DNA from: a virus
IMG/VR virus record: IMGVR_UViG_3300042874_000443
Span: 62,001-126,000 of that record
Direction: 5' to 3' (one strand)
DNA length: 64,000 nucleotides
Below the pieces are notes generated by a model, which worked only from the letters and a program-made list of their open reading frames with translations, searched no databases and had not been told where the DNA came from. The position numbers and the translations under genes were made by a program. Numbering within the stretch: position 1 is the first letter of the stretch; each line of letters opens with the position of its first letter. Of this stretch, positions 5,511 to 54,345 are shown piece after piece.

Positions 5511-5965
5511 TGGAAGGGGTCCTGTGGTGGTTGTGGCGGTGGGGCGCTACCGAGTAGATGTCCGGCACCATGCCCGAGGCGGCCGCCGAGCGCAGCACCG
5601 AGAGGCATACCAAGCATGCCGCCCGCCATGCCGCCGTATGCACCGCCCGCGAGACGCCCAAGTGTTCCGAGCGCATGTGACGCGCGCCCTTCGTTCGGGT
5701 CTGGATTGGTTACCGCACGCATCGCCATCGGTACCATGGCGAGCGTTCCTGCACGACCAATCCAGTTACCGAACGTACCGTACTGTGATGGCCAGAACAC
5801 GTTCTTCCAATGCAACGCACCGCCTGGTGAGAATGCCTTGGGTCCTTGTACGAACGCACGACCTGCATCACCGATGAGCGACCGTTTGGCGAAGTCGACT
5901 ATCCCAGCCACCTTGAAGTGTGACAGGGCTGCGACTACGCCTTGTTCATGTGCCTTTGACAACAT
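5507..5965 (-). CDS. Glycine-zipper protein with shared N-terminal motif, 152 aa
   Basis: ATG 5965 overlaps the stop of the beta-prime C-terminal gene (TGATG). The N-terminus, AHEQGVVAALSHFKV, belongs to the motif family seen in neighbouring small proteins. Residues about 85-140 are Gly/Ala/Met-rich with GxxxG spacing (GGAYGGMAGGMLGM, GAALGGRLGHG), typical of glycine-zipper helices that can enter membranes. A Pro-rich tail follows. It could be a virion-internal or membrane-interacting protein. A holin role is possible but not supported by clear transmembrane hairpins. Confidence 0.75.
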   Translation of the reverse strand: MLSKAHEQGVVAALSHFKVAGIVDFAKRSLIGDAGRAFVQGPKAFSPGGALHWKNVFWPSQYGTFGNWIGRAGTLAMVPMAMRAVTNPDPNEGRASHALGTLGRLAGGAYGGMAGGMLGMPLGAALGGRLGHGAGHLLGSAPPPQPPQDPFQ

Positions 5966-7746
5966 CAGTACTGACCCTCTTCGCCAAGGCCAAATTCAGT
6001 GCCGGCAACATACGCTGGAACAGGTGACGCTCCATGCAGATTGGACACATCCCCTCGATGGATACCCGCCAGCAATGACTCTTTGAGATAGCGATGTGCG
6101 AGACGCGCCATCCAGTCAGGGTTGAGAAGAGGTGTGCGCGACGCTGGGCGCATCAACGGCGTGGCGCGTGGGCCATGCTCTGCAATCAACACGGACGTCA
6201 CACCGTTCCGGGTCAGTTGGTCCGCCATCGGTTGCGTCACAAGCGTGCCTGCCGTGTGGTGCAGTACATTGTCCGCTAACGTCTCGCCGACCGCGTCCGC
6301 CGTGGGGAGGCGCTTCTTGGAAGATGCGAGCGCAGCATGGAAGCGGTTGTAGTCGACGACGTCGCCCTTCAAGAACGCGTCGTGCGGCCCAGGGTCCACG
6401 ATCTGTACGTGGTTCAAGACCGACTTCGCAAGGGTCTCGAGGTGGCGCTTGTCGACCTCGGAGCCCGAGCGTTTGTAGACGTCAGACAACGCGTCGACGA
6501 GATAGCGACGTCCTTCACCGAGGCCCTTGTGCTGCACGACTTCATCGGGCTTGGGAACGCCATCGGAGAGCAGGTCGCCCGCGTACATCGACTGTCCGAC
6601 GTTCACGATGACCTTGTGTGTGGGTGCCACGTAGTGACTGCCGTCGTTGACGAAGACGTAGTGCCCACCTTGAGGCGCCTTGTCGATCTTGGTGATCGTA
6701 CCGTCTCGGTTCGCAAGGGTTGCCTTGTGTGCGAAGGCCGTCGGAATTTCGAGCAGAGACCGCACACCTTTGATGCCTTCGAGGCGTTTTTCATCGTCGA
6801 CACTGGCCACGCGTCCGCCGTGCTTGGCGTTCAGCGAGAACTGCGTCAAAGGCTCGGACAGCGCTTGCGCTGCACGCACTCCGACGTTCGTTCCGATCGA
6901 GTGCATCGCGCCCGAGGGGGACAAGCCCTGGCAGTGCTGACAAACACCGTGCGCGGCTTCGCACGTCATCGGTGACCGTACGACGACTTCTTTGCCCGTC
7001 TTAGCCAGGGTCGACGCGTACTGCGGCGTGATGAGTTTGTTCGTCTTTGCTTCGTAGCGGTCGATGATGTGCGCGTCCGTCGGAAGCATCGCCAGTCCGT
7101 TGTGCGTGCCGCAGTCGATCTTCGTGACGAGCTGATCCCCCATGTTGTTGACGAGGATCTTGGCGAGGTCGCCTGGTTCGACGACGGAGATGTTCGACAG
7201 CACGGCGTTGACGCGCGCTTCGCCCCCGGCGACCCATGCGTCAGCAGGCTTGAGGCCTTCGGAGAAACTGCGATCGATGAGCCACGGGACGATCTTGCCC
7301 TTGGAGTCGCGCGCGAAGACAGGCGCTCCGACTGTACGCATCAGCTGAGGTGCGTTGCCGCGTCCGCCCGACCGCACCATCTCGCCCATCGTGCCCGGGT
7401 GCTTTTTTGCGAGCGTGAGCATCGAGTCGAAAGCGCCGTTGAGCGCCTTGTCCTTGTCGACGGTGGTCGTCGCACGACGAAACGCTTCGACGTGCGGCTT
7501 CATGGCTGCATCGCGTGCCGCGGTGTGCGGTGCGATGTCGTCGAGCCCGACCGAGATGCCGTCGAGCGTTGCCGTCTCGTCGCCCAGGCGTTTGAGCTTG
7601 GTGACGATGTCGGGGTACTTGTGCGGGTCATCCTTGGCGATGCCGACAAGGGTCTCGTTCAACGATCCTTTGGTGAGCGCGCCACGCCCGCGCCACTTCG
7701 GTGGGAGGATCGAGTCGACGAGATGTTGGCCGAGCGTGGTGGCCAT
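5965..7746 (-). CDS. rpoC: RNA polymerase beta-prime, C-terminal half
   Basis: This 593-residue chain carries the downstream half of the RNA polymerase beta-prime subunit. Visible blocks are the GKGLT-like entry (ALTKGSLNETL, near 23), DGISVGLDD (62-70), the MVRSGGRGNAPQ block leading to the bridge-helix region (123-165), and zinc-site cysteines in DCGT (212) and TCEAAHGVCQHC (261-272). The trigger-loop region GVRAAQALSEPLTQFSL-N-A-KHGG (289-311) keeps the catalytic-type His. Near 333, GVRSLLEIP matches GLPRVxELFE of cellular enzymes. No large insertion interrupts the trigger loop. It must pair with the fused beta/beta-prime polypeptide encoded upstream in the same operon. The break lies where cyanobacterial and plastid rpoC1/rpoC2 are split. 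Confidence 0.93.
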   Translation of the reverse strand: MATTLGQHLVDSILPPKWRGRGALTKGSLNETLVGIAKDDPHKYPDIVTKLKRLGDETATLDGISVGLDDIAPHTAARDAAMKPHVEAFRRATTTVDKDKALNGAFDSMLTLAKKHPGTMGEMVRSGGRGNAPQLMRTVGAPVFARDSKGKIVPWLIDRSFSEGLKPADAWVAGGEARVNAVLSNISVVEPGDLAKILVNNMGDQLVTKIDCGTHNGLAMLPTDAHIIDRYEAKTNKLITPQYASTLAKTGKEVVVRSPMTCEAAHGVCQHCQGLSPSGAMHSIGTNVGVRAAQALSEPLTQFSLNAKHGGRVASVDDEKRLEGIKGVRSLLEIPTAFAHKATLANRDGTITKIDKAPQGGHYVFVNDGSHYVAPTHKVIVNVGQSMYAGDLLSDGVPKPDEVVQHKGLGEGRRYLVDALSDVYKRSGSEVDKRHLETLAKSVLNHVQIVDPGPHDAFLKGDVVDYNRFHAALASSKKRLPTADAVGETLADNVLHHTAGTLVTQPMADQLTRNGVTSVLIAEHGPRATPLMRPASRTPLLNPDWMARLAHRYLKESLLAGIHRGDVSNLHGASPVPAYVAGTEFGLGEEGQY

Positions 7747-7747
7747 A

Positions 7748-8131
7748 TCACATCATGGGGTAGCCGCCGCCCGCGTTCATCATGGCGTGCTGGCGTGCCT
7801 GCTCTTCGCGCTTGGCCTGGTTGTGTCGGTGCAACATGTAGAGGCCGCCGCCGGCGAGTAGCGACGGTGCGAGCGTCTTGAGATTGCCGAGGGCGCCCGC
7901 ACGCGCGGCCGCACCAGCAGCAGCGTCTGGCGCTCCGCCGAGGCCTTGGTGCAGGTTGCCGAGTAGGCTCTTGCCCGCCTCGAGCTGACCCGACCCGAAC
8001 GCCTTGGCCCGATCCATGAGGCCAGCACCGGCCGCTGGCGCTGCTCCCATACCTGGAAGTGGGAGCTGGTTGGCGATCTTGAAACGCGCGAGCGCGTCGA
8101 AGTGTCCTTGGGCAACGTAGCGGTCGAGCAT
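7748..8131 (-). CDS. Small protein with shared FK(I/L) N-terminal motif, 127 aa
   Basis: ATG 8131 overlaps the upstream stop (TGATG). This start is preferred over an upstream in-frame ATG that lies within the preceding gene. The N-terminus reads RYVAQGHFDALARFKI, matching the motif of the proteins at 5510 and 5965. The middle is Ala/Gly-rich and helical, followed by a short hydrophobic stretch (TLAPSLLAGGGLYML) and a basic end. The gene sits between the two RNA polymerase subunit genes. It may be a polymerase accessory or co-packaged protein, but that is inference from position alone. Confidence 0.75.
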   Translation of the reverse strand: MLDRYVAQGHFDALARFKIANQLPLPGMGAAPAAGAGLMDRAKAFGSGQLEAGKSLLGNLHQGLGGAPDAAAGAAARAGALGNLKTLAPSLLAGGGLYMLHRHNQAKREEQARQHAMMNAGGGYPMM

Positions 8132-8607
8132 CAGACGCCTCCGAAACTGGTGTTCTGTCCCATATCGCTGAGCCGGTTGGCGGCATCGCCGCCGGCAAGG
8201 TTCGACGGCGCACCCCACGACGTGTTGCGGTCGAGAGGGTCACGCGCTGCGAGCTGATCGGCGGGCGCCATCGGAGCGTCGATCTCCTTGAGCAGATCGG
8301 CGAGGCTGTCCGCTGTTTCTTCGTTCGCGCGTTTGGCGTTTCGATCTGCTTCAGCCTTATGGGCTGCGTCGAAGCCGTGGAATGTGCGGCTCGGAATCTT
8401 CAGGCGCAGTTCCTCGGCGGCTTGCTTGAAACCGAATCGCTCGAGAGCATCGACGATGCCGAGTAGGTGCGACTTCTTCACGTGCTGCGGCAACTTCTTA
8501 CCCTTGGGAGTGGCGTCCTCCCACTCCTTGACGGTCTTGGAGCTGATCTCGCCGCGGTCTGCCATGGCGTAGAACTTCCCCCGTTGCGCTTGGGACTTGA
8601 AGGGCAC
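8131..8607 (-). CDS. Protein with MPFKSQAQR domain between RNAP subunit genes
   Basis: This 158-residue protein uses a GTG start at 8607. Residues 1-45 (MPFKSQAQRGKFYAMA, then KEWEDATPKGKKLP) match a short basic domain common in phage structural and accessory proteins that begin MPxKSxAQ. Residues 48-65 contain LGIVDALERFGFKQA, a variant of the cluster's shared helix motif. The C-terminal half is acidic and Asn/Ser-rich. The TATAAT-like element ends only five bases before the GTG and no Shine-Dalgarno site is visible, so a leaderless transcript is possible. Function unknown. Confidence 0.75.
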   Translation of the reverse strand: MPFKSQAQRGKFYAMADRGEISSKTVKEWEDATPKGKKLPQHVKKSHLLGIVDALERFGFKQAAEELRLKIPSRTFHGFDAAHKAEADRNAKRANEETADSLADLLKEIDAPMAPADQLAARDPLDRNTSWGAPSNLAGGDAANRLSDMGQNTSFGGV

Positions 8608-8612
8608 GCTCT

Positions 8613-8620
8613 ATTATAGG
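8613..8620 (-). promoter_or_regulatory. Candidate late promoter CCTATAAT
   Basis: The minus strand reads CCTATAAT, built on the last codons and TAA stop of the giant polymerase gene and placed five bases before the GTG of the next gene. The same octamer recurs upstream of minus-strand genes at 36210, 40525 and 47671. No -35 element is apparent. Confidence 0.45.
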
Positions 8621-11600
8621 CGCGAGCCTTTGATTTCGATGGGATCGTTGAGCGCGATCTCGCCCCGGTGATAGGCAGCCATCGCTTCTTCCTGGGACTC
8701 GAAGTGCTTTGTTTTCTTGCTGGCGGGGGCCTGCGTCGCTCGATGGAGCCCGAGCAGGCTCTCCATCTCGGGCACGATGTTCAAGACGCCCGGACGCTTG
8801 TCCGCAAAGATCATGTGGGACAGCGTCATTTTCTTCACGTCTTCGATGCCGGCCGGCGTGACGGGCGCGTGGATCTGCATTGCGTCACCGTCGTAGTCCG
8901 CGTTGGTCCCCTTCTCCGCGAAGGGGTTGAGCTTGAGGGTCTTGCCTTCCACGATCTTCGGGTACGCACCGATGATGTTGAAGCGATGTAGCGACGGCGC
9001 CCGATTCACCATCACCGGCCGCTCCCGGGATTCGTTGACCAGCTCCTCGCGTGCGATGGGCTTGCGGTCGTCGACCATCTTCTGCGCGTCGGTTGCGGTG
9101 TACCCGCGACGCACGAGGCGTCCGATCACGAACTTACCGTACATCCCCCAGAGCATTCCTTCGGGCACGCCGATCTCATCCATCGACAACGTCGGATCTG
9201 GCGCGATCGTCGCGCGCCCGCTGACGTCCTGTTGGCGCTTCATCAAACGCGATTGGAAGAAGCCGCTGCCCGGACGTGTGCCGGTGATCGCCGCGAGGTA
9301 TCCCTTCGCCCCGCGCTTCTCGGCACCAGGGCTGACAGGGTCACCGACGCCGTAGAGCGCGCTCACCGCGTCGTAGAGATGTTGGCGTGGCGCCGGATGT
9401 TCGGCGGAGGGCAAGCTCTTCGTCGCGTCCTTGAGCTGGTTGTTGGCGAGGAACGCATCCTTATAGAGAAGGTTCGCGTCGCTGACCTGCAGGCGCCCAT
9501 CCTTGAGCGGCAAGATGGGACGGATGATCGGCGGCGTGACGGGAACCTTCGTGATGACGTAGGCGTCCGCTGGTTTGAGGTTCTTCTCCTTGAGCGCCTC
9601 GAGATACTTGATCTGCTTCACTACGCCGTCGAGCGTGGGGCCGCGGGCCTTCTTCGACTGCGTGTGCAGATCCTTCAGCTTGTCGTCGACGTTGATCTCG
9701 CCGAGCGCCGACTTGAACCACGCACCGCCCTTACCGACGTGTGTCGTGAACTCCTTCTGTGTGAGGCCAAGGAGACGGCGGACAGGTTCTTCGAACACTG
9801 GGTTGACGATCGGTTCGTGAAGGTCGACGTGTGTCCACTTCGTGCCTGACATACCGCCCGTCATGCCGGGGTCGAAGAGCCCTCCGACTTCGGGACGCAG
9901 GTCCTTTGCACGGATCAGACGGCTGGGGTCCTTGAGCGCGCCTGACGACATCGACTTCACGTCGGCGTCCGTGAGGGGGCCGAGCGAGAGACGCGAGCCC
10001 GCCTTCGACACTTTCACACCAGCGCCGGTGAGCATGCTCTGCAGCTTCTCGTAGGCGAACGGAGTTTTGGGTGCAGGCGTCGGCAACCCGAGCTGCACCG
10101 CACGCCAGAACTCGTCGTTGCGTTGGCTCTTGATGGACGCAGCTTCACGCAGCACGTTGCGCGCGTTGTGCGCGACGAGCCCATCGAATTCCATCTTGCC
10201 GATGCCCTTGGCGCCCTCATCACCACCGCGCGCGGGCTGCTGGTTGTAGTCGTACCGCTCGGCGCCGTGCGCCGCCCAGTTCGAGTCCGTCGTCTTGAAG
10301 AGCTTGAGGATGTAGCTCTTGCCGACGACGACGTTGGGGATCTTCTTGCCGGTGATCGGGTCGAGCACGGTCTCTTTGTCGGAGAGGCCGTGTTCGTCGA
10401 GCAGCTTCTTTGCGAAGGCGACGTTGTCGCGGCCCGGCGTGTATTGCGGAACGACGATAGGCTTCCCGATCTTCTCTGCGACTTTGCCCAGCGCCGTCTC
10501 GACGATCTGTGCGGGGTTGATGCGCGAGACGACACCCGCGGACGTGAACAACAGATCGATCGGACGTCCTTGCGCGTCATGCACCATCTGGTGGTCGGGG
10601 ACGATCTTCGCGATGACGCCCTTGTTGCCGAATCGGTTGGAGAGCTTGTCTCCGATCTGCAGTGCTTCTTGTGTTCGAACCGACGCAGCTGCGTGCTTCG
10701 CTGTTTTCGCGATGTCGATGACAGTGCCCGGTCGGTCGTGGTCCCACGTCGCGATGACTTCTTCGTAGGGTTTGATGAGCGCCTTGGACAGCTTGCCGAG
10801 AAGCGCGGCGTCGCCCGTCGCCTTGTTTTCTCGAACGCCCACGATGATCGGGTCGCCCGGATGAAGCGTCACACCGTGCTTGACCACGCCGTCGTCGTCG
10901 AGCTTGTCGTACTGCTCCTTCGTGTACCGACTGCCGAAGTACGATCGATGACGCTCACGTCCGAGCTGCGTGTCGCCCTCACGTGACACCGCGTGCTGGT
11001 ACATGTGCTCGCTCGTCAGCTTGTCCGCCGCGCCTTGCGAAACGACGATACCGTCGTTGGTGTTGAGGCCGCGGTACGGCATGTACGCCACGCTCAAGTT
11101 CGTGCCGAGCGCGAGCGCCCCGCCCTTGGTGAAGTTGCTCTCGGCGAGCGGCTGGTTCTTCTTGACGGTATCGCCCACCTTCACGGTCAGCGTGTTGTGC
11201 AGCGCTGTCTTGGCTGCTAGCGGGAAGTCCTGATCGTAGTGGTGGCGCGAGTTTTCGGCTCCCGTCTTTGCGTGGTGCCCGACGTGGATGTAGTCGCCGT
11301 CGATCTTCGTGATGACGCCGTCGTGACGCGCAGTCGGCACGAGCAACTGCACCATGTCCTGTTCGACGGACGAACCGGGGTTCCATGATGCGACCTGAAC
11401 CAGTGGCGCTTCGCGATGGGTGAGCGGTAGCGCCTGTCCTTGATGCTTGCTCGCCATCAGCACACGGTTGCCCTGGATGCCGTAGACGAAGGGCAACAGG
11501 TTTGACGTCGGTCCGTACTGGTCAGCAACGTGTTCGATCTGATGTGTCACCTTGTCCGCAGACACGCGCGACACCACCCCGTGCGCCATCGCATCGACCA

Positions 11601-12975
11601 TCTTGCCGGGCTTCACGACTTCGCCGGGGAAGGCGATGACCGACGCAGCCATGTCGCCCGCCTTGAGGTAGGTCGGACGTCCCGTCTTCACGTCGATGAC
11701 GGGGGCGTAGAGGTTGCCCTTGTCGTCACGGCGCGCGCCGATCGCTGCGCGTAGGTCGACACCGATCTTGAAGCTCTCAGGACTGCGCGCGGGGTCGAGG
11801 ATGCCCAGGTGCGTCGGGTGAACATCGCGAGCCTCGAGCGGGATGGCGCGGTCGGATGCGATGGCTCCTTCGCCGAGCATTGTGACGCGCGACGCTTCGT
11901 CGAGCAGTTCCATTGGATTGATCTGCATCGGGACCGCGCTGAGGGAACTGCCTGTGAGCAGTCCATGCATCGAGCGCGTGAAGGGGCCCGCAGGCAACGC
12001 CTTCTTGATGTCGCCGTGGCTGGCGTCCAGTTTCCAGCCCAGCTTGGCTTTCATCGCGCGCGCCTCGAGCGCAACACGTTCCTTGACGAAGTCGTCCACC
12101 GAGTGGAACGTCTTGAACGCGAGCGAATCTCGGTCGTCGACGTCCGCAGCTGTCTTGTGTACGTCGAGCAGCTTCTTGGACGCAGCAAGGATGGCAGCGG
12201 GCGACGCCTTCTCGTAGGGGTACCCGAGCGTGTGGTGCGTGACCGCGGGGTCCATCGAGGTGTTGTCGAAGTACTCACGCAACACACGCGACTTCTCGTC
12301 CGTCGTTGTCGCGGTTTGCTTGGCTGGATGCACCAGCGTTTCGTACAGCTTGTCGACGTGCTTGTCGGGGTTCTTCCACGCGTCTCGATTCATCGACGCG
12401 ATCTCGGGGCCCCAGTTCGTTGCGATGTCTTGGTGCGGGATACCGAGCGCACGCAAGACAGGGTGCAGTGGGATCTTCGATGTTGTGTGCGACGGTTGCA
12501 TGTAAAGGAGCCCCTTCTCGGGGTCCATCGACATGCGAAAGTTCGCGCCCTTCGCTAGGTTGAACGTTGCCTCCAGTTCTTCATTGCCGCGCCGACGGAT
12601 GTACGCACCCGGTTTGGTACGAATCTGGTTGGAGACTGAGTACTCCGTCCCATCGAGAATGAACGTGTGTCGAGGCGTGAAGTACGGCAACTGAAGAAGC
12701 GTGAAGTCTTTGGCGTGGTTGACGGTGCTGCCGCTTGCGTCCTTGACCGTCAGGTCTCCACGTACCCGCTCCGCGAGCGTCTTGCCCTCGAGCACCGCGT
12801 GTTTCTGTTCACGCGACGAGAACTCTTTGGGTTCGACACGGACGTTCGTCAGCTCGAGGGTGTGCTTGCCCGCCTTGAGCGGGAACGCTTGCTCGAGGCC
12901 TTCGACGACCTTCTTGCGGATCATCTCGCGACGCGTGGCCGCGTCTTCGAGAACGGGTCGTAGATTCGGCAGCAT
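8614..12975 (-). CDS. rpoB-rpoC: RNA polymerase beta fused to beta-prime N-terminal half
   Basis: A single 1453-residue polypeptide. Beta blocks: LDGTEYSVSNQIRTKPGAY (108-125), the rifampicin-pocket/fork region ending RDVHPTHLGILDP (near 340-395), YMPYRGLNTNDGIVVS (631-646), GDKLSNRFGNKGVIAKIVP (775-793), DLLFTSAGVVSRINPAQIVE (807-826), and the beta C-terminal block GKMEFDGLVAHNARNVLRE (about 940-965). Beta-prime then starts with GGLFDPGMTGG and reaches the metal-binding NADYDGD (1358-1364). The chain ends after FESQEEAMAAYHRGE. The usual first beta-prime zinc finger is absent between GGLFDP and the following helix. All catalytic Asp residues of the NADFDGD signature are present, so the enzyme should be active with the separate C-terminal chain. 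Alpha and omega homologues are not seen here. Confidence 0.95.
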   Translation of the reverse strand: MLPNLRPVLEDAATRREMIRKKVVEGLEQAFPLKAGKHTLELTNVRVEPKEFSSREQKHAVLEGKTLAERVRGDLTVKDASGSTVNHAKDFTLLQLPYFTPRHTFILDGTEYSVSNQIRTKPGAYIRRRGNEELEATFNLAKGANFRMSMDPEKGLLYMQPSHTTSKIPLHPVLRALGIPHQDIATNWGPEIASMNRDAWKNPDKHVDKLYETLVHPAKQTATTTDEKSRVLREYFDNTSMDPAVTHHTLGYPYEKASPAAILAASKKLLDVHKTAADVDDRDSLAFKTFHSVDDFVKERVALEARAMKAKLGWKLDASHGDIKKALPAGPFTRSMHGLLTGSSLSAVPMQINPMELLDEASRVTMLGEGAIASDRAIPLEARDVHPTHLGILDPARSPESFKIGVDLRAAIGARRDDKGNLYAPVIDVKTGRPTYLKAGDMAASVIAFPGEVVKPGKMVDAMAHGVVSRVSADKVTHQIEHVADQYGPTSNLLPFVYGIQGNRVLMASKHQGQALPLTHREAPLVQVASWNPGSSVEQDMVQLLVPTARHDGVITKIDGDYIHVGHHAKTGAENSRHHYDQDFPLAAKTALHNTLTVKVGDTVKKNQPLAESNFTKGGALALGTNLSVAYMPYRGLNTNDGIVVSQGAADKLTSEHMYQHAVSREGDTQLGRERHRSYFGSRYTKEQYDKLDDDGVVKHGVTLHPGDPIIVGVRENKATGDAALLGKLSKALIKPYEEVIATWDHDRPGTVIDIAKTAKHAAASVRTQEALQIGDKLSNRFGNKGVIAKIVPDHQMVHDAQGRPIDLLFTSAGVVSRINPAQIVETALGKVAEKIGKPIVVPQYTPGRDNVAFAKKLLDEHGLSDKETVLDPITGKKIPNVVVGKSYILKLFKTTDSNWAAHGAERYDYNQQPARGGDEGAKGIGKMEFDGLVAHNARNVLREAASIKSQRNDEFWRAVQLGLPTPAPKTPFAYEKLQSMLTGAGVKVSKAGSRLSLGPLTDADVKSMSSGALKDPSRLIRAKDLRPEVGGLFDPGMTGGMSGTKWTHVDLHEPIVNPVFEEPVRRLLGLTQKEFTTHVGKGGAWFKSALGEINVDDKLKDLHTQSKKARGPTLDGVVKQIKYLEALKEKNLKPADAYVITKVPVTPPIIRPILPLKDGRLQVSDANLLYKDAFLANNQLKDATKSLPSAEHPAPRQHLYDAVSALYGVGDPVSPGAEKRGAKGYLAAITGTRPGSGFFQSRLMKRQQDVSGRATIAPDPTLSMDEIGVPEGMLWGMYGKFVIGRLVRRGYTATDAQKMVDDRKPIAREELVNESRERPVMVNRAPSLHRFNIIGAYPKIVEGKTLKLNPFAEKGTNADYDGDAMQIHAPVTPAGIEDVKKMTLSHMIFADKRPGVLNIVPEMESLLGLHRATQAPASKKTKHFESQEEAMAAYHRGEIALNDPIEIKGSRL

Positions 12976-12992: not shown

Positions 12993-13370
12993 TTAGGGCA
13001 GCCGTCGCGGTCGTTCGACAGGTTCAGCATCGCCCGCGTCTTGGTCGTTCGCCGGCGCCGGACGTGTTCGCGGCGTCAGGTAGACCAACGCCACCATGAA
13101 GTCGCCTTCCTTGGTGAACGTGCGGTCTTCGTAGCGCATTACAGCTTCGCCGCGCAGCACTTGGTTCATGACGTCTTCGTAGGCCTCGCGGTCTGCGGGA
13201 AGCGCGTAGACCTCGGAGTGCGCTTCGAAGTCCAGGTCAGGCCCGCCGCGGTTGACGCGCGGCTCGAACGCCGTCCTCCCTGGGCCGTTGCTGAACAGAC
13301 TGCCGATGTCGTTGCTGACCTTCTGCGCGCGTTCGACGACGGCCGCGAAGTCTTCTGATTCTTGGGGCAT
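12993..13370 (-). CDS. Hypothetical protein between portal and RNAP genes
   Basis: This 125-residue protein starts at ATG 13370, with AGGAT about 5 bases upstream. The N-terminal half is helical and the middle has alternating hydrophobic strands (VMRYEDRTF, FMVALVYL). The tail is Pro/Arg/Asp-rich and likely disordered. It lies just after the portal gene and 18 bases before the polymerase gene. No family is recognised. Its place suggests a head-neck or polymerase-associated virion component. Confidence 0.7.
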   Translation of the reverse strand: MPQESEDFAAVVERAQKVSNDIGSLFSNGPGRTAFEPRVNRGGPDLDFEAHSEVYALPADREAYEDVMNQVLRGEAVMRYEDRTFTKEGDFMVALVYLTPRTRPAPANDQDAGDAEPVERPRRLP

Positions 13371-13381
13371 GGTTTATCCTA

Positions 13382-15184
13382 TCAACCTACCGCCGGAGGT
13401 CCAGCGGGGGGCGCACCGCCCGTACCACCAGACGGGTCGCCGCCCTGGCGCGACATCGCGATGGCCTGCTGATTCATCTGCGTGGTCTGGTCGTGCAGAC
13501 GTTCCTTCACGACGGCGTACATCACCATGTCTTCGGTCTGCAACGCGTGCATCTGCGACTGGCGCGTGCCGGGGTCGAGGCCCATCAGCTGTTGAACAAG
13601 CTGGTCTGCCTGCGCGATGACAGCCTGCTGGTCGTACGACAACCCTTGCTGCCCCATCTGCGCTTGCGCGCGTGCGCGAGCGCCCAGATCGTTCTGGCGT
13701 TTCTGCATCTCGATCTGCAGCTCTTGCGCGACGCGCGCGTCGTCGAGCGCTTCCTGCATGCGCCACTTCCGCTCGTCGGAGGGGTCGATGTTGAACGTCT
13801 CGCCCATCGTTCGCTTGGAGATCCAGGGTCCTGTCGTTGGGTCTGCGCCGTTGAGCTGGAGGAGCAGCGCCTTCTGTTGCACGTCGTCGATGAAGCGGAA
13901 GGGCGCGAGCGTGACCACGACGGTGCCGCGTCCGAGTTGTTTGGCGGCCTTGTCCGTGACCCACTGCAGGAGGTCGTTGAGGTCACCCGTCTGATGGACG
14001 AGCTGGTTCTCGAGCACACGGAGCTGGATGCCTGAGCCCATCGCCGAGAAGCCGCCGTAGATGAACTCCTTGGGTAGCCCCATCGCCGCGATGATGTTGT
14101 CCTCGGCCGCCTGGACTTCGCCGAGCGTCATGAGCGCGCGGGCCTGACCGCCGAGGTGCGTGACCTCCGCAGGGACTGGCGACCACATGATGTGCAGCGG
14201 GTCGCGGCGCCACTTCTTGACGCTGCTCTTCATCTCGTCTGACCACTTCGCCAGCGAGATCGTCGTCATCGGGTCGGCGTTCGCCGTCGACTGCTTCGGC
14301 GAGATGATGCGCAGCGGGACGATGTAGTCGAGCGCGATCGCTTCGTTCGCCTTGCGGAGCACCGCTGCGTAGAAGAACAGCTTGATCGTCGACGCCAGCG
14401 GCGGAAAGCCCCACTGGGCCTCGATGCCCGCAGGTGCGTCCATGCGCATGTGGAAGACCTGACCCTCGGCGAACTTGAAGATCTTGTCTTCGCGGATCGC
14501 TTCCAAGAACTCCATCGGCATCGTGTCGATGAGGTGCTTGTTCCCCTTGGCGCAGCGTTCCTTAATCTCCTTGGGGATCGTGTAGTAGTACTCGCTGTGC
14601 CCGGTGATGGGGTTGTAGTCGATGTCCATCAACTTCGGGTCCCAGCGGATCACCGAGATGCGGTCCTTGCGCGTGATCTTGCGGTCGACGATGTTCTTCG
14701 CACCGACGTCGACGCGCGTCTTGCAGCCACTGCACTCGTAGTTGAAGGCCAGCTTCTTGAGTTTGAACTTGTAGGTGATCTGCTGGATGTTCGTCAGCGT
14801 CTGGCAACGCGGGCACTTCAGGAAGCGCACGAACGGCGAGTACATCGAGAAGAACGCGTTGCCGTAGACGAACTTGTCAACGGCCGCACGGATCAAGATG
14901 CGCTTGGTCTTGAGCGTCTTGTTGTGGAGGTCCTCGTAGTATTCCTTGAGCGCTTCGTTCTGCGTCTCGTAGACGATGTCCGTGACGGGGTACGTGCAGA
15001 ACTTCTGCAGCGCCGCGTAGATCTGCGAGCTGTTGAAGTAGAGGTATTCGCAGAGGCGGAAGAGGTCCTTCAGCTTCCGGGGCGCGAACGCCGTGAGGAA
15101 GTCGAAGAGCGGGCTGCCGTGCGAAGACACGTTGTGCGTCGCGAGATCAGCGACCCCGGGGTCGAACATTCCATCAGCGGCCAT
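13382..15184 (-). CDS. Portal protein with zinc ribbon
   Basis: This 600-residue protein starts at ATG 15184 with GAGG 7 bases upstream. Order and composition are typical of a portal: an N-terminal helical region, a wing with a KxxRILIRAAVDKFVYGNAF-like core, and a central block with VFHMRMDAP and RIISPKQ. LGEVQAAEDNIIAAMGLPKEF (near 355-380) resembles the portal stem/crown helix region. A Gln/Ala-rich helical tail ends in Gly/Pro. C124, C127, C151 and C154 form a likely zinc ribbon in the wing. The portal is the DNA gate of the capsid vertex and the dock for terminase. The gene heads the virion/RNA polymerase operon. Confidence 0.8.
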   Translation of the reverse strand: MAADGMFDPGVADLATHNVSSHGSPLFDFLTAFAPRKLKDLFRLCEYLYFNSSQIYAALQKFCTYPVTDIVYETQNEALKEYYEDLHNKTLKTKRILIRAAVDKFVYGNAFFSMYSPFVRFLKCPRCQTLTNIQQITYKFKLKKLAFNYECSGCKTRVDVGAKNIVDRKITRKDRISVIRWDPKLMDIDYNPITGHSEYYYTIPKEIKERCAKGNKHLIDTMPMEFLEAIREDKIFKFAEGQVFHMRMDAPAGIEAQWGFPPLASTIKLFFYAAVLRKANEAIALDYIVPLRIISPKQSTANADPMTTISLAKWSDEMKSSVKKWRRDPLHIMWSPVPAEVTHLGGQARALMTLGEVQAAEDNIIAAMGLPKEFIYGGFSAMGSGIQLRVLENQLVHQTGDLNDLLQWVTDKAAKQLGRGTVVVTLAPFRFIDDVQQKALLLQLNGADPTTGPWISKRTMGETFNIDPSDERKWRMQEALDDARVAQELQIEMQKRQNDLGARARAQAQMGQQGLSYDQQAVIAQADQLVQQLMGLDPGTRQSQMHALQTEDMVMYAVVKERLHDQTTQMNQQAIAMSRQGGDPSGGTGGAPPAGPPAVG

Positions 15185-15236
15185 GGTTTACCTCGCCAAC
15201 ATGTAACATCGTAACGTGATAGAAAGGCCAACACGT

Positions 15237-17222
15237 ATGGGCAAAGCCCTGATGGATGTCCGTGTTGGGCGTGCAGGAAACGGGACCCCCGTGTTCCTGG
15301 TTCCTGGACAGAACCCGACGTTCGGACGCGTCTTCGGCGCGGTGTGGGACACGACACGCGCGCTGTGGATGTACCCCGCGTTCTTCCCCGCGGCCGACAA
15401 GGTGCTCGCAGACCTGCAGACCGTCGCCAGCGACGTCAACGTCGTCATCTCGGACGTCGCTAAACGGCACATCGATTCGCTTGCAGACGTTCGTCGTCGT
15501 GCCGAAGCGAAGGACCTGCCTGCTGATTTTGGGTTCGTCACAGAGCCGTACCAGCATCAGATCGAAGGGCTGTGCCACGTGTTCTACAACATGCGGGCGG
15601 CACTGTTCTACGACCCCGGTCTCGGCAAGTCGAAGATCGCGATCGATCTCCTTCGGCTGCTCCGTCACACCGGCGTCAGGTCCCAAGCGCTGGTGCTCGG
15701 GCCCCGCATCACCGTGCGGAACTGGGGACGTGAGATCGATCGTCACGCAGGCCGCCAACTGTCGTGGATCACCTTGACAGGCACCCCGAAACAGAAACGG
15801 GAAGCCCTCGAGCGCGCGGCCGCGGAGGGTACCGACATGGTTTTGTCGACGTACGACACTGCGAGAAGTTTAGTGGATTTGCTCGTAGAACGGCTGCCTT
15901 ACAGCATTCTCGTCTGCGACGAGAGCCACAACGTGAAGACGTGGCAGTCCGAACGCACCAAAGCGACCTGGGAGATCGCCCAGAAGGCGGTCCGGCGCAT
16001 CCTCATGACAGGGTCACCAACCGAGGGCAATCCGCTCCATCTGTACGGTCCCTACAAGATCTTGGGCGACTGCTTCATGCCCGAGAACTACTTCAAGTTC
16101 AAGAAGACCTTCGTCATCACGCGAGGCCCCAACTCTCCGATCGTAGTCGGTTACAAGAACCTCGACGTCATCAATGCCCGTACGACGTTCTTGTCGCTAC
16201 GACGTACCAAAGAGGAGTGTCTTGACCTCCCCGAGCGCACCTTCGTAGACGTGGACTACGAGCTGTCGCCAGAGCAGGGCACGTCCTACAACCAGATCGT
16301 TACGACGATGGGCATCGACCCCGCGACGCTCAACATGCTCGTCACTGCGATGCGTACTGCCGGCGGTAACGCCCTGCCGATGCCGGCGACACTTCCTCCA
16401 GAGATGGAGATGCCGCACCGTGCAGCGGCGCTCACCAAGCTCTTGCAGATCACGTCAGGATTCCTCGTCAAGAACGAGAAGGACCTCCAGTTCTGTGACA
16501 CCGCTGAACAAGGACAGCAGTGCCGTCATTTGCAGCGATGCATCGAGAACAAGATCCTGCCGCACACGCCTCGCTGTCATGTTGACCAGACGCCATGGCC
16601 TACGTCGCTTACACGGTTCGACGAGAACCCCAAGCTCGACGCGATCATGGAGCTGCTCACGAACATTCTCGAAGTTCCGAAGCACAAGGTCATCATCTGG
16701 TGCGCGTTCCATCCTGAGATGGACTTGATCACGGAGCGCCTGACGACCGCCGAGGTCAAACACGTGCGCGTCGACGGAAACGTCCGTGACCCGATGGTAC
16801 TGGTCGATCAGTTCAATGACGACCCGGATACACGCGTCTACGTCGGACAGGTGACGACAGGTGTCGGGATTACGTTGAATGCTGCAGCGTACATGATCTA
16901 TAGCTCGTTGCCGTATTCGCTCAATTCGTACAACCAGTGTTTGGATAGAAACTATCGCATCGGACAAGGCGAGAAGGTTACGGTGTACCGCATGCTCGGT
17001 CGGTCAACCTTGGAGGCGGCCGTCGCCTACCTGCTTGACCACAAGGTGGATGTCGACTCACTGCTCACGAACAAGATCGAATGCGCGATGTGTCTAAATA
17101 GCATCCGTTGTTTGGCAGAAGGAATCGAGCCATTCGAGACGGGATGTATCTACCCCAAGCGCGTTGATCGCCCCATCGTCAAGGCGTATGCGCTCCCGAT
17201 GTTCCCTGGAGGTTCGCGATGA
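15237..17222 (+). CDS. SNF2-type superfamily 2 helicase/ATPase
   Basis: This 661-residue protein has ATG 15237 as the better start, with GAAAGG 9 bases upstream; an in-frame GTG at 15216 would add 7 residues. Motif I is DPGLGKSKIA (near 127), motif II is DESH (near 226), motif III is TGSP, and motif VI is NQCLDRNYRIGQG, the Q-x-x-x-R-x-x-R-x-GQ pattern of SNF2 enzymes. A Cys-rich insertion lies between the lobes (FCDTAEQGQQCRHLQRC) and more cysteines near the C-terminus (CAMCLNSIRC), so metal binding is possible. It likely remodels replication or recombination intermediates. It begins the plus-strand replication operon and is divergent from the portal gene. Confidence 0.9.
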   Translation: MGKALMDVRVGRAGNGTPVFLVPGQNPTFGRVFGAVWDTTRALWMYPAFFPAADKVLADLQTVASDVNVVISDVAKRHIDSLADVRRRAEAKDLPADFGFVTEPYQHQIEGLCHVFYNMRAALFYDPGLGKSKIAIDLLRLLRHTGVRSQALVLGPRITVRNWGREIDRHAGRQLSWITLTGTPKQKREALERAAAEGTDMVLSTYDTARSLVDLLVERLPYSILVCDESHNVKTWQSERTKATWEIAQKAVRRILMTGSPTEGNPLHLYGPYKILGDCFMPENYFKFKKTFVITRGPNSPIVVGYKNLDVINARTTFLSLRRTKEECLDLPERTFVDVDYELSPEQGTSYNQIVTTMGIDPATLNMLVTAMRTAGGNALPMPATLPPEMEMPHRAAALTKLLQITSGFLVKNEKDLQFCDTAEQGQQCRHLQRCIENKILPHTPRCHVDQTPWPTSLTRFDENPKLDAIMELLTNILEVPKHKVIIWCAFHPEMDLITERLTTAEVKHVRVDGNVRDPMVLVDQFNDDPDTRVYVGQVTTGVGITLNAAAYMIYSSLPYSLNSYNQCLDRNYRIGQGEKVTVYRMLGRSTLEAAVAYLLDHKVDVDSLLTNKIECAMCLNSIRCLAEGIEPFETGCIYPKRVDRPIVKAYALPMFPGGSR

Positions 17223-20454: not shown

Positions 20455-20889
20455 GTGCCTGTCTGTTCTGCCTGCAAACGTCCCAAGCGAAAGGATCAGT
20501 TCCACTTCGCCAACAAGGCGCGTGGCGAGCGGCACCGCAAATGTAAGACCTGCGCTTGCAAAACAGCGCATCAGTACTACCGAGACAATCGTGACGCTGT
20601 TTTAGTGACAGTCGCCCGACGAACTGTTCGTCGGAAACGTGAATGGCAGCAATGGATCGACGGTCTCAAGGACGCACCTTGTCTTGATTGCGGTGGGCGC
20701 TTTCCAAGCTACTGCATGGACTTCGACCACTGCAGAGGCGGAGCCAAGCGCTATTCAATCTCGGAACTGACGTCTAACCGTCTTTGGTCAAAGACACGCA
20801 TCTTGACGGAAATCGCAAAGTGCGATCTCGTGTGTGCAAACTGCCATCGGATCCGTACACACAAACGACGCAAGACGCACAAGTATTAG
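20455..20889 (+). CDS. HNH endonuclease
   Basis: This 144-residue protein uses GTG 20455 and has no clear ribosome site. It has an N-terminal zinc knuckle pair (CSAC, then CKTCAC), a basic helix, CLDCGG, and the HNH core CMDFDHCRGG followed by KCDLVCANCHRIRTHKR. This is the common phage free-standing HNH type, likely a homing endonuclease. Its stop overlaps the convergent sigma-factor gene by four bases. Its codon use looks less GC-biased than the neighbours. Confidence 0.85.
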   Translation: MPVCSACKRPKRKDQFHFANKARGERHRKCKTCACKTAHQYYRDNRDAVLVTVARRTVRRKREWQQWIDGLKDAPCLDCGGRFPSYCMDFDHCRGGAKRYSISELTSNRLWSKTRILTEIAKCDLVCANCHRIRTHKRRKTHKY

Positions 20890-21677
20890 AGGTACGCGTC
20901 TTCGGTCGAAAGGCCGACACGCGTCTTCAGCTCGTTGTGCAGGAGCTGCATGCCGTTGATCTTGATCTGCCGCACGCGTTCGGGGCACATGCCCATGATG
21001 GCGGCGATCTGCACGAGGTTGCGCGCGTCGTCCTTGACGCCGTAGTAGAGGTTCAACACCGTCTGCTCGCGTGGCGGTAGCCGATCGATTCCTTCACGCA
21101 CGATGGCGCGGAGACGTTCGGCGCCGTAACACGATGTCGGCTCGGCATCGACCACGTCGGGTGTGTGGCGAGCTGCATCGATCGGCATGACGATCCCTTC
21201 AGGGAGTCCGGGGTCCATCGCCATGACCGACTTGCTCTCGGGGCCGTGTTCTTGAACAGCCGCTCGAAACTCCCGCGCCTGCCGGCGCTGTGCTTTCTGT
21301 CGGTGGGCAGGGACGTGGACGAGCGACGCGGTCGTGTAGTCCTGGTTCGACATCTCTTCGTAGATCCACCAGCCGGCGTACGTCAGGAAACGGATGTACG
21401 GCTTGCGTGCCCCGTCGAACTTGTCGGCGGCCTTGAGCAACCCGAGGTTGCCGGCGGCGATGAAGTCCTTGACGGCCTCGGGATCCTTGGTGCGCTTGTG
21501 CGCCATCTTCACGACGAAACGTAGATGGGTTTGCACGATGGCGTCGCGCGCCTTCACGTCCCCTTGCTGTTGCCAGCGACGGATCAGACGTTTTTCTTCC
21601 GCCGCGTCCTCTACGAGAGGGGTGCGTGCGATCTCCGAGTAGTACATCGAAGCGACACGCATCTGGGTTGCAACCAT
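20886..21677 (-). CDS. Sigma-70 family factor
   Basis: This 263-residue protein starts at ATG 21677. It has region 1.2-like YYSEIARTPLVEDAAEEKRL (12-31), region 2 with RFVVKMAHKR, FIAAGNLGLLKAADKFD and FLTYAGWWIYEEMS (53-110), and a diverged region 3. Region 4 contains LPPREQTVLNLYYG and the helix-turn-helix IAAIMGMCPERVRQIKING (200-242). Overall it resembles the RpoH/RpoD type. It should direct host or phage RNA polymerase core to phage promoters. It stands alone, divergent from the plus-strand Cys-rich gene, and an inverted repeat lies in its upstream region. Confidence 0.92.
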   Translation of the reverse strand: MVATQMRVASMYYSEIARTPLVEDAAEEKRLIRRWQQQGDVKARDAIVQTHLRFVVKMAHKRTKDPEAVKDFIAAGNLGLLKAADKFDGARKPYIRFLTYAGWWIYEEMSNQDYTTASLVHVPAHRQKAQRRQAREFRAAVQEHGPESKSVMAMDPGLPEGIVMPIDAARHTPDVVDAEPTSCYGAERLRAIVREGIDRLPPREQTVLNLYYGVKDDARNLVQIAAIMGMCPERVRQIKINGMQLLHNELKTRVGLSTEDAYL

Positions 21678-21700
21678 GGTTACGGACAACCTACCAAGCG

Positions 21701-21716
21701 TTGATCGACTGATCAA
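21701..21716. promoter_or_regulatory. Inverted repeat upstream of sigma gene
   Basis: TTGATC and GATCAA flank four bases. On the minus strand the left arm could serve as a weak -35 (TTGATC) 17 bases before TAGGTT, close to the sigma gene start. This is a plausible operator for autoregulation or for control of the divergent gene. It rests on pattern only. Confidence 0.3.
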
Positions 21717-21871
21717 ATAGTTACGCGTATGGCCACTACCTGTGGGGGCCTCGATCTCGTTTCGTACCCCAGGAATAGCGCCAAGATTTTTCGGATCACG
21801 ATGCTTGCCAAACAAACATGCCGGTCACTAGAGTGGCCCTCCACCTTCACTGCATTCCAAAGGAAAGTGAC

Positions 21872-52502: not shown

Positions 52503-53612
52503 TTACGTTACCTTTCCATCCGACCATGTGCCCACTGAGAAGTCGAACGTCATAGGGGTCGCGACTACAGGAGCTTGCCCTTTGAATGCGGAGGCTACTG
52601 TATAAAGGCTTGTGCGGTGGACATCTACGGTTTGCGCGACGTTGTTCGCGTGCTGTGCTTGTCCATTTTTGATGTCCGCAACGCCTTTGTTTTGAAGCGT
52701 ATTGGCGCGGTTCAACCCATTCAGCGCGTTGGCCACCGCCCCTGACGCTCGCTGTAACCCTACAGACTCGAGGATCGGCAAGATAATGTCTGCCGCTTGA
52801 CTCGAGTTCGTTGAGTCTCGATGGTTCGGCCAGTAGTTCGGCACCATCGCGGTTGGACGAACAAGCACACGCAGACCGCCTGACGTAAACGCGACCTGGA
52901 GATGGAGATGTGTGCCCTTGTGGAACCAGTTGTAATAACCACCCGTGCCGCCCACCTCGCCGATCTCATCTCCTTCTTGCACTTTCTGACCGTACGCAAC
53001 AAATGTACGGTTCATATGAAAGTACTCAGTCTGGTACCCCTGAAAATCACCATCATGACGAATAGTCACGAACATGCCGCCGAACCCGATGTTGTTGGCG
53101 ACCTTCGACGCGACTTCCTCGCCTTTGGCGTTGTACATGATCTCCTTGGCGTCATCTCCGTAGATGCCAGGGACCTGAACGCCGCCACTCTTGGACTGGA
53201 AGCCAACGAAACGAACAGTGCCGCTGGCCATCGCAAACAGTTTCTCGCCGCGTGGCGCCGTGAAATCGAGCCCCAGATGCCGCGCAGCAGAATTGACCTG
53301 TTTGTTATACCCCGTTGACCGAGGGTCTCCCCAACCACTCGCAACGACGCGTTCACGGTTGGGCCCCTTCGCATAGGTGCCACTCATCGCAAGTGGAGAC
53401 CCAAACAGTCGCTTGAGCGGCACTGGAACTGTTTCGAAGAACCGTTTCTTGGTGACGGGGTCGTATTCAGGTGCAGGTATCGTCTGGTTCGCGTCGGACG
53501 TGACCTTTGCGCGCTGAGACGCCGCAGCGCGTGCCGCGCGTGCGCCTAGTTCATCGAAGGGCTGTTCAGCAGGGCGGACTGGGTCGCGATCCGAGGGATC
53601 GTCATTTGCCAT
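52503..53612 (-). CDS. M23 family metallopeptidase, tail-associated
   Basis: This 369-residue protein starts at ATG 53612 and overlaps the sigma gene's end by 11 bases. The LytM/M23 zinc site is HLGLD (H112, D116) and HLHLQ (H235, H237), in a GxxVRFVGF and GDEIGEVGGTGGYYNW context. A disordered N-terminal arm precedes the domain. A helical C-terminal segment follows. It should cut peptidoglycan cross-links at entry. Base composition is less GC-rich than its neighbours, which hints at transfer. Confidence 0.9.
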   Translation of the reverse strand: MANDDPSDRDPVRPAEQPFDELGARAARAAASQRAKVTSDANQTIPAPEYDPVTKKRFFETVPVPLKRLFGSPLAMSGTYAKGPNRERVVASGWGDPRSTGYNKQVNSAARHLGLDFTAPRGEKLFAMASGTVRFVGFQSKSGGVQVPGIYGDDAKEIMYNAKGEEVASKVANNIGFGGMFVTIRHDGDFQGYQTEYFHMNRTFVAYGQKVQEGDEIGEVGGTGGYYNWFHKGTHLHLQVAFTSGGLRVLVRPTAMVPNYWPNHRDSTNSSQAADIILPILESVGLQRASGAVANALNGLNRANTLQNKGVADIKNGQAQHANNVAQTVDVHRTSLYTVASAFKGQAPVVATPMTFDFSVGTWSDGKVT

Positions 53613-54345
53613 GGACCTTCTCCACGTGCTCGATCAGCTTCGCCTTGGCGTAGCTGTACTGTCCCTGCGTCATGTTGAGCTTCTTCTGAATCTCGGTGTT
53701 CGAGAGTTGCGTGGCGCCGCCGTAGCCTGTCAGGTGTTCGAAGATCGCTTTCTGCTGGGGAGCCAATCCGTGGTGGATGAAGTCGACGACGTGGTCTTGC
53801 TTGTCGGCGTCGTAGAGCCCGGCATCGCCCGTTTCGAACAAGCCGCCTGACTCGAGCAGTTCCTTGCGCCCGATCGACTTGCGGTACTCCTCGACACGAT
53901 GAACCGGCCAACCGAGATGATCGGAAAGCTCGTCAGTTGTAGGCGCGCGTCCGTGCGCGTCCGCGAGGTCCGAGTGCGCCACGTTGTAGCTGTGGTAGAG
54001 CAGCATCTTGTTCTCGGGAAGCCGCGCGACGTTCTGGTTCGCGTAGCTCAAGCGAGACATGCGTTGCAGCTGGTTGACCACGTGCGTGCCGAGCGCTGCG
54101 CCCTTGTTCGGGTCGTAGCTGTGGAACGCTTCCATCGCGAGACGCTTGCCTTCCGTCTCGAGAAGCGGACGCGCGAGCGTCCCCGACCACTTGTTGACCT
54201 CGCGATGGATGAGCGGTGAGACCTGCCCCAGGAGCGCGCTCGCATGCGCGTCTGTGGGCTTGTCCTTCCACGTCTTCCACGCATCCATGTCGGACTGTTG
54301 CCGTCCGGTTGCTGCGAGCTTGGTGATGGCGGACAACGCGTTCAT
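53602..54345 (-). CDS. Sigma-70-like factor in the baseplate operon
   Basis: This 247-residue protein starts at ATG 54345 (ATGA overlap with the hub gene). Region 2-like sequence is AMEAFHSYDPNKGAALGTHVVNQLQ (about 70-95) and the following NVARLPENK. A region 3-like helix-turn-helix is DELSDHLGWPVHRVEEYRKS (138-157). Region 4-like sequence is LAPQQKAIFEHLTGYGG with IQKKLNMTQGQYSYAKAKLI (194-238). It lacks a clear region 1. Such reduced sigma factors usually drive late transcription or are packaged with a virion polymerase. It is odd to find it between a lytic hub and a peptidase gene. Confidence 0.8.
   Translation of the reverse strand: MNALSAITKLAATGRQQSDMDAWKTWKDKPTDAHASALLGQVSPLIHREVNKWSGTLARPLLETEGKRLAMEAFHSYDPNKGAALGTHVVNQLQRMSRLSYANQNVARLPENKMLLYHSYNVAHSDLADAHGRAPTTDELSDHLGWPVHRVEEYRKSIGRKELLESGGLFETGDAGLYDADKQDHVVDFIHHGLAPQQKAIFEHLTGYGGATQLSNTEIQKKLNMTQGQYSYAKAKLIEHVEKVHGK

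What the first reader, a model, noticed from the sequence alone, without database searches (positions are those of the whole stretch)
5965..12975. RNA polymerase with beta fused to half of beta-prime, other half separate
One 1453-residue chain carries beta and beta-prime up to just past NADYDGD. The remainder of beta-prime is a separate 593-residue gene after two unrelated small genes. The break matches the rpoC1/rpoC2 split of cyanobacteria and plastids, while the beta/beta-prime fusion recalls Helicobacter and Wolbachia. I know of no phage polymerase with exactly this combination.
Basis: partly seen in the sequence, partly recalled or inferred. Interest (0 to 1): 0.85.

Follow-up and report, generated by a model that had tools for sequence, protein, structure and literature searches.

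The report
Phage RNA polymerase fused, then re-cut
This phage makes its own bacterial-type RNA polymerase with the two big subunits joined end to end and the second one cut at a new place; the layout is shared by a whole group of phages (including lab-grown Salmonella and Vibrio phages), and their relatives carry the polymerase as one uncut giant chain.

Summary
A 1453-aa chain (8614-12975, minus strand) carries beta plus beta-prime through NADYDGD; the rest of beta-prime is a separate 593-aa gene (5965-7746), two small genes downstream. It is not an assembly error: dN/dS is about 0.1 in both halves and across the junction, and the layout recurs in dozens of independent contigs.

It is not unique. 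Cultured Salmonella phage Arash and Vibrio phages D69, D148 and D181 have it, as do Desulfovibrio-isolate contigs. I found no paper describing it.

New here: 22 dereplicated IMG/VR relatives carry beta and complete beta-prime as ONE open reading frame, about 2000-2300 aa without large inserts (up to 3012 aa with them). The fused-plus-split form is one clade inside this one-chain grade (SH-aLRT 100; one-chain monophyly rejected, AU p 3e-17). So beta and beta-prime fused first and beta-prime was cut later: the subunit border moved.

The cut (E. coli beta-prime about 552/554) lies about 65 residues upstream of the cyanobacterial and YerA41 cut, so the rpoC1/rpoC2 match is wrong. Alpha and omega were not detected; a sigma factor is present.

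Best reading: a phage-encoded, alpha-less RNA polymerase working as two chains. Verdict: real, a new variant of a known kind.

The parts
8614..12975 (-). Fused RNA polymerase chain: beta (residues 1 to about 995) joined to beta-prime N half (about 1000-1453)
   Evidence: Pfam Rpb2_3, Rpb2_6, Rpb1_1, Rpb1_2; profile split; dN/dS 0.096; AF2 of residues 300-1453 with pLDDT 81, best PDB matches are cellular beta chains
5965..7746 (-). Separate beta-prime C half, 593 aa: bridge helix, Zn2 site, trigger loop, jaw/C-terminal region
   Evidence: Pfam Rpb1_5; AF2 pLDDT 84.6; best PDB matches are cellular beta-prime chains, E 2.5e-29
9961..10023 (-). Beta/beta-prime junction (fused residues about 985-1005), no linker; beta-prime N-terminal Zn ribbon absent
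   Evidence: alignment to E. coli RpoB/RpoC; ordered in model
10621..10653 (-). Beta active-site lysine motif GDKLSNRFGNK (E. coli K1065/K1073 equivalents)
8884..8904 (-). Catalytic NADYDGD motif (Mg binding), fused residues 1358-1364
8614..8640 (-). Break point: C-terminal end of fused chain (...NDPIEIKGSRL), E. coli beta-prime about 552
   Evidence: one-chain relatives read through this point
7720..7746 (-). Break point: start of the C chain (MATTLGQHL...), E. coli beta-prime about 554-560
7141..7248 (-). Bridge helix (C-chain residues 167-202), single 36-residue helix
6931..7113 (-). Zn2 cysteines C212, C262, C269, C272 of the C chain
6793..6885 (-). Trigger loop/helix (C-chain residues 288-318); E. 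coli R933 replaced by N, H936 kept
8131..8607 (-). Intervening small gene 1 (158 aa), unrelated to RNAP
7748..8131 (-). Intervening small gene 2 (127 aa from conserved ATG), unrelated to RNAP
12993..13370 (-). Small gene between portal and RNAP (125 aa)
13382..15184 (-). Portal-like protein gene (homologue of Arash gp204 'portal protein'), upstream neighbour conserved across the clade
20886..21815 (-). Phage sigma factor, regions 2 and 4
53602..54345 (-). Second sigma-like protein (Sigma70_r3, phrog_351)
15216..17222 (+). SNF2-type helicase, opposite strand, conserved neighbour in most of the fused-plus-split clade

Best explanation
These two genes encode the phage's own bacterial-type RNA polymerase core, built from two chains instead of the usual beta, beta-prime and alpha dimer. 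Chain 1 (1453 aa) holds all of beta and the beta-prime N half with the catalytic NADYDGD; chain 2 (593 aa) supplies bridge helix, trigger loop, Zn2 site and jaw. The layout arose by fusion then fission: an ancestral phage joined beta to beta-prime into one chain of about 2000-2300 aa, still kept by the one-chain relatives, and one descendant lineage, including this phage, Arash and the Vibrio phages, cut beta-prime once at a new joint (E. coli about 552/554). The in-cis tether between beta and beta-prime probably replaces alpha as assembly platform, and a phage sigma factor (20886-21815) probably directs it to phage promoters; both are inferred. Shown: the chains, conserved domains and key residues, clade, order of events, purifying selection, no detectable alpha or omega, presence of sigma. 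Not shown: activity, complex formation, promoter use, timing, whether it is packaged in the virion.
For: Domains in order. Active-site motifs GDK/NKG, NADYDGD and four Zn2 cysteines kept. Models match cellular beta and beta-prime chains. dN/dS about 0.1 throughout, junction included. Same layout in Arash, D69, D148, D181 and many IMG/VR contigs. One-chain relatives. Trees: split form one clade with SH-aLRT 100, one-chain grade paraphyletic; AU test rejects one-chain monophyly, dlnL 100, p 3.3e-17. Break at the same joint in all members aligned, with essentially no residues lost relative to the one-chain forms. No alpha or omega detected in 15 phage records while controls rang. Sigma region 2 in 9 of 15 records including this one, with region 4 in the same protein. 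Single RNAP match in the record.
Against: Bridge helix and trigger loop depart from cellular consensus (E. coli TRR lost, R933 to N), so catalysis could be unusual. Sigma region 2 was not found in the one-chain and early-branching split records searched, so sigma use is not a clade-wide trait. The alpha test is by profile only; a very divergent assembly factor would be missed. The record may be a fragment. No protein data.
Confidence: 0.8

Rival explanations
1. The RNAP is a virion RNA polymerase: made late with the structural genes, packaged into the head, and injected to transcribe early genes, as proposed for phiKZ vRNAP. (A refinement of the best explanation rather than its opposite.)
For: Portal-like gene on the same strand upstream of the RNAP in nearly all split-form and 15 of 22 one-chain members; tightly packed run of genes from portal to beta-prime C half; only one RNAP in the record.
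Against: Gene position alone says late expression, not packaging; neither chain carries the N-terminal tag seen on neighbouring small genes; Arash annotation calls neighbours 'structural' but not gp206 or gp216; presence of a sigma gene fits made-in-cell transcription equally.
Confidence: 0.4
2. The beta-prime split was inherited from a cyanobacterial or plastid-type polymerase (rpoC1/rpoC2) and the beta/beta-prime fusion was added later.
For: Both breaks fall after the beta-prime catalytic barrel; PMC7598289 raises this for phiKZ-group RNAPs.
Against: Break about 65 residues upstream of the cyanobacterial one; uncut one-chain relatives surround the split clade; best PDB sequence matches are not cyanobacterial.
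Confidence: 0.03
3. The two halves are joined after translation, by split-intein trans-splicing, or before it by RNA trans-splicing, so the working enzyme is again one chain.
For: Inteins and homing endonucleases are common in this RNAP in relatives.
Against: Neither the end of chain 1 nor the start of chain 2 carries intein-half sequence in the window or aligned relatives; both ends line up with the uncut relatives at the same joint; chain 2 has its own start codon.
Confidence: 0.03
4. The ancestor of the fused clade already had the split, and one-chain forms arose by re-fusion.
For: The joint just above the split clade is weakly supported (0.43; open forks).
Against: Needs re-fusion in the L050/L097 lineage and in at least one other, at the same residue; L050/L097 fall outside with support 100; one-chain monophyly rejected p 3e-17.
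Confidence: 0.1

Closest known systems
mReC RNA polymerases (Weinheimer and Aylward 2020, PMC7481178)
   Same: Phage-encoded, recognisably bacterial-type beta and beta-prime, tailed phages, sister group in my trees; RNAP surrounded by structural genes.
   Different: The two-gene phage loci I sampled, taken here as mReC-type, have separate beta-prime (about 900 aa) and beta (about 1000 aa) genes, beta-prime first. The paper's main text mentions fusion only for crAss-like phages.
phiKZ/AR9-group jumbo phage vRNAP and nvRNAP (PMC7598289)
   Same: Multisubunit, no alpha or omega, beta-prime cut after the catalytic barrel.
   Different: There beta is also cut into two or three pieces, the beta-prime cut is at the cyanobacterial site, and no sigma is encoded. 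Here beta is intact and fused to beta-prime, and the cut is elsewhere.
Yersinia phage YerA41 / Cobetia phage Carin-5 type RNAP
   Same: In YerA41 beta-prime N and C halves are separate genes; Carin-5 was seen only as a similarity hit.
   Different: YerA41 beta is a third gene, no fusion; cut at E. coli about 622-637.
Cyanobacterial and plastid rpoC1/rpoC2
   Same: Beta-prime in two chains, cut in the region after the catalytic barrel.
   Different: Cut about 65 residues further downstream; beta is separate; alpha present.
Helicobacter and Wolbachia rpoB-rpoC fusion (own knowledge)
   Same: Beta joined to the beta-prime N-terminus.
   Different: There beta-prime is whole; the phage one-chain relatives resemble this, the window does not. 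Alpha present in those bacteria.
crAss-like phage single-chain RNAP
   Same: Beta and beta-prime functions in one polypeptide (compare the one-chain relatives).
   Different: crAss enzyme is reported as too divergent for standard RNAP profiles (PMC7481178); one-chain queries did not list crAss-like phages among the hits shown.

Membership tests
Phage-encoded bacterial-type multisubunit RNAP (mReC kind) | Beta and beta-prime homologues recognisable by cellular profiles | tested here: met
   Pfam hits to E 3e-46
Phage-encoded bacterial-type multisubunit RNAP (mReC kind) | Encoded by a tailed phage (terminase, portal) | tested here: met
   Terminase large subunit at 31639-33252; portal homologue; IMG/VR record
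Phage-encoded bacterial-type multisubunit RNAP (mReC kind) | Clusters apart from cellular RNAPs with other phage RNAPs | tested here: met
   All phage rows one side of a branch with support 100 against E. coli and a Staphylococcus-type sequence; only two cellular rows, so a weak test of depth
Phage-encoded bacterial-type multisubunit RNAP (mReC kind) | Separate beta and beta-prime genes, as in the two-gene loci sampled | tested here: not met
   Fused
phiKZ/AR9-type RNAP | Beta split into two or more chains | tested here: not met
   Beta continuous in the 1453-aa chain
phiKZ/AR9-type RNAP | Beta-prime split at the cyanobacterial-like site | tested here: not met
   Break at E. coli about 552/554
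phiKZ/AR9-type RNAP | No sigma factor encoded | tested here: not met
   Sigma r2 and r4 at 20886-21815
Cyanobacterial/plastid rpoC1-rpoC2 | Break at the RpoC1/RpoC2 position | tested here: not met
   8h3v_E gamma chain (625 aa) runs about 65 residues past the phage break
Cyanobacterial/plastid rpoC1-rpoC2 | Sequence affinity to cyanobacteria | tested here: inconclusive
   Best PDB matches are other bacteria; no cyanobacteria in the trees
Helicobacter/Wolbachia-type rpoBC fusion | Whole beta and whole beta-prime in one chain | tested here: not met
   C half separate in the window; met in one-chain relatives
crAss-like single-chain RNAP | Sequence similarity to crAss-like RNAP | tested here: inconclusive
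   No crAss-like phage among listed hits of one-chain queries; no direct comparison made
Functional RNA polymerase | RNA synthesis by the two chains | not testable with these tools
   Needs biochemistry

The most novel reading that the evidence does not exclude
A large phage lineage turned the bacterial-type RNA polymerase into a single alpha-less chain, and one branch later re-cut it at a new place, so that the subunit border of this universal enzyme moved from between beta and beta-prime to the middle of beta-prime. I found no description of this fusion-fission route in the papers searched.
Probability: 0.7. Interest if true: 0.75.

Novelty: new variant of a known kind. Interest (0 to 1): 0.62.

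Why it matters
Cellular multisubunit RNAPs use alpha (or its archaeal/eukaryotic counterparts) as assembly platform. This clade supplies natural one-chain and two-chain enzymes with no detectable alpha or omega but recognisably bacterial sequence, some with their own sigma factors. It gives an order (fusion, then fission) for how subunit borders of a universal enzyme can move, and it shows that a beta-prime split need not indicate cyanobacterial descent. Cultured phages exist (Salmonella phage Arash, Vibrio phages D69/D148/D181), so assembly without alpha and promoter choice can be tested directly.

Tried and rejected
Frameshift or assembly error: rejected by the recurrence of the fused ORF and dN/dS about 0.1. 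'Staphylococcus/Enterococcus phage Kay/Efs' hits as unfused relatives: rejected, they carry full cellular-type RNAP with very high Pfam scores and look like bacterial DNA in phage assemblies; likewise 'Acinetobacter phage MD-2021a' is a chromosomal rpoBC region with ribosomal protein genes. Moabite 'beta-beta prime' and Eowyn 'RpoBC' as earlier fusions: rejected, the genes are only about 480-520 aa. Cyanobacterial break: rejected by position. Trans-splicing: no intein halves at the break. Large AU test on 60 rows with the mixture model did not finish; a 33-row LG+G4 test did. The whole 1453-aa chain exceeds the fold limit, so residues 300-1453 were folded; the two chains could not be folded together. 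Promoter/terminator scan gave nothing clearly above chance. Literature on Arash and on a one-chain phage RNAP of this kind: nothing found. A 1453-aa 'RNA polymerase beta subunit' of Photobacterium phage PDCC-1 appeared among weak structural matches; whether it is fused was not checked.

Full report
Observation. On the minus strand, ORF 12975-8614 encodes 1453 aa and ORF 7746-5965 encodes 593 aa. Pfam places Rpb2_3, Rpb2_6, Rpb1_1 and Rpb1_2 in order along the first and Rpb1_5 on the second. The two genes between are 158 aa (8131-8607) and 127 aa (7748-8131, from the ATG that homologues share) and have no family match. The window is bases 62001-126000 of a 157,408-base IMG/VR virus record with terminase (31639-33252), DNA polymerase A, primase-type and portal-like genes.

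Reality. The junction reads straight from the end of beta (...FAYEKLQSMLTGAGVKVSKAGSRLSLG) into beta-prime (PLTDADVKSMSSGAL...GGLFDPGMTGG), the equivalent of E. coli beta-prime about residue 25 onwards, with no linker and without the N-terminal zinc ribbon. dN/dS against L016 is 0.096 for the fused chain, 0.098 for residues 960-1045 and 0.11 for the C half. All 26 IMG/VR loci of the first scan have the fused ORF.

Not unique. Salmonella phage Arash has a 1525-aa fused chain (gp206) and a 606-aa C half (gp216) with nine annotated genes between; Vibrio phage D69 has 1527 aa plus 609 aa with two small ORFs between; in D181 the fused gene is interrupted by a homing endonuclease. A genome scan found the fused ORF in two Desulfovibrio isolate assemblies (1469 and 1474 aa), each with a separate C half elsewhere in the assembly. 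Weinheimer and Aylward (PMC7481178) mention fusion only for crAss-like phages; other literature searches gave no description of this layout. Subscription papers are not covered.

Relatives and layouts. Profiles for beta, beta-prime N and beta-prime C were run on ORFs of all loci. Layouts: (1) fused beta-beta-prime-N with separate C half; (2) one chain carrying all three, mostly about 2000-2300 aa and up to 3012 aa where inserts are present; (3) two genes, beta-prime about 900 aa then beta about 1000 aa; (4) two genes, beta-prime about 1000 aa and beta about 1360 aa. Layouts 3 and 4 occur together in some contigs. After dereplication, 44 rows have layout 1 with both halves seen, 14 more have the fused chain with the C half outside the fetched stretch, 22 have the one-chain layout and 63 are two-gene. 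In one such case (L191) the C half was found about 14 kb away.

Order of events. In three trees (FastTree LG, 146 rows; IQ-TREE LG+C20 PMSF, 60 rows; LG+G4, 33 rows) the fused clade is one group, the split form is one clade (support 99-100), and the one-chain rows L050 and L097 lie outside a fully supported node joining the other one-chain rows with the split clade. Forcing one-chain rows together costs 100 log-likelihood units, AU p 3.3e-17. So the simplest history is fusion once, then fission once. Even if the one-chain rows were a clade, fusion first would need fewer steps. Caveats: some deep forks are open, only two cellular rows root the tree, the AU test used a simple model, and the hypothesis was formed after seeing the first tree.

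The cut. Aligned with uncut relatives, the fused chain ends and the C chain starts at the same joint, E. coli beta-prime about 552/554, with essentially no residues missing (the last few residues scatter over about 547-577 for alignment reasons). Cyanobacterial gamma (8h3v_E, 625 aa) aligns to residue 554 at fused residue 1444 and runs about 65 residues further. YerA41's cut is at about 622-637. PMC7598289 says the phiKZ-group cut coincides with the cyanobacterial one. The window's cut is therefore a separate event.

Function. Beta GDK/NKG lysines, NADYDGD and the four Zn2 cysteines are kept; the trigger loop keeps H936 but has N for R933, and the bridge helix has lost the TRR motif. AF2 gives pLDDT 84.6 for the C half, with a single 36-residue bridge helix, and 81.1 for residues 300-1453 with an ordered junction. 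Foldseek matches are cellular beta-prime chains for the C half (E 2.5e-29) and cellular beta chains for the fused fragment (E 3e-47). No alpha (PF01193) or omega (PF01192) was detected in 15 phage records, while control genomes rang. Sigma region 2 was found in 9 of the 15, including this record, Arash and D69, but not in the one-chain or early-branching records searched; the window's protein also has region 4.

Mechanism proposed. The in-cis joint between beta and beta-prime keeps the two large subunits together and probably makes alpha unnecessary; chain 2 docks to complete the active centre; the phage sigma gives promoter choice. From own knowledge, engineered E. coli RNAPs with tethered beta and beta-prime, or with beta-prime cut at a chloroplast-type site, are functional, which makes both steps plausible. 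Activity, complex formation and timing are not shown.

Place in the genome. The RNAP follows a portal-like gene on the same strand in nearly all split-form members and 15 of 22 one-chain members, and the genes from portal to C half are tightly packed. This suggests late expression with the virion genes and leaves open a packaged virion polymerase.

Verdict. Real, conserved, not unique, apparently undescribed; the cyanobacterial comparison fails; the deeper result is the fusion-then-fission history and the one-chain relatives.

Noticed in passing
L011, L013, L018, L029, L056, L098, L100, L125, L135, L153, L164, L174, L197 (RNAP ORFs): Probable inteins (start Cys, end mostly ..GN/SN/CN before Ser/Cys/Thr) at several sites in conserved RNAP motifs, including next to the active-site lysines and inside or beside the catalytic DGD; found by alignment and end residues, not tested by profile. 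D181 has a homing endonuclease in the same gene.
   Followed up: partly
window 5507-5965, 5298-5510, 7748-8131, 8131-8607 (-); genome 35463-36289, 50537-52315 (-); also L009, L010, L143, L144, L150: A short motif near the N-terminus (AY..G...AL..FK) shared by many otherwise unrelated small genes around the RNAP and elsewhere in the record; might be a virion or prohead targeting tag.
   Followed up: partly
L076+L107, L053+L108, L091+L111, L104+L112, L079+L113 (same IMG/VR contigs): Two-gene phages of this kind often carry two different RNAPs in one contig (beta-prime about 900 aa + beta about 1000 aa, and beta-prime about 1000 aa + beta about 1360 aa), reminiscent of virion and non-virion polymerases.
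   Followed up: partly
L051-L129 two-gene loci: Beta-prime lies upstream of beta, the reverse of the cellular rpoB-rpoC order, whereas the fused clade keeps beta before beta-prime.
   Followed up: no
L021, L026, L028, L182, L195 (C-half ORFs): The beta-prime C half carries an extra C-terminal extension of about 380-750 aa with no Pfam match in the two tested.
   Followed up: no
window 41123-44377 (+): Ribonucleotide reductase large-subunit-like ORF with an internal LAGLIDADG domain, probably an intein.
   Followed up: no
window 27807-30803 (+): DNA polymerase A fused to a uracil-DNA-glycosylase-type domain at its N-terminus.
   Followed up: no
L210 4789-9951, L211 5218-7789, L212 5182-8298: Smaller single ORFs (857-1720 aa) in Propionibacteriaceae and Armatimonadota MAGs with both beta and beta-prime catalytic parts, distant from the fused clade.
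   Followed up: no
L031, L033 (OR844998.1, OR846602.1), L030 (CAKLQF020000005.1): Public 'phage' records that are evidently bacterial chromosome pieces with normal rpoB/rpoC.
   Followed up: partly
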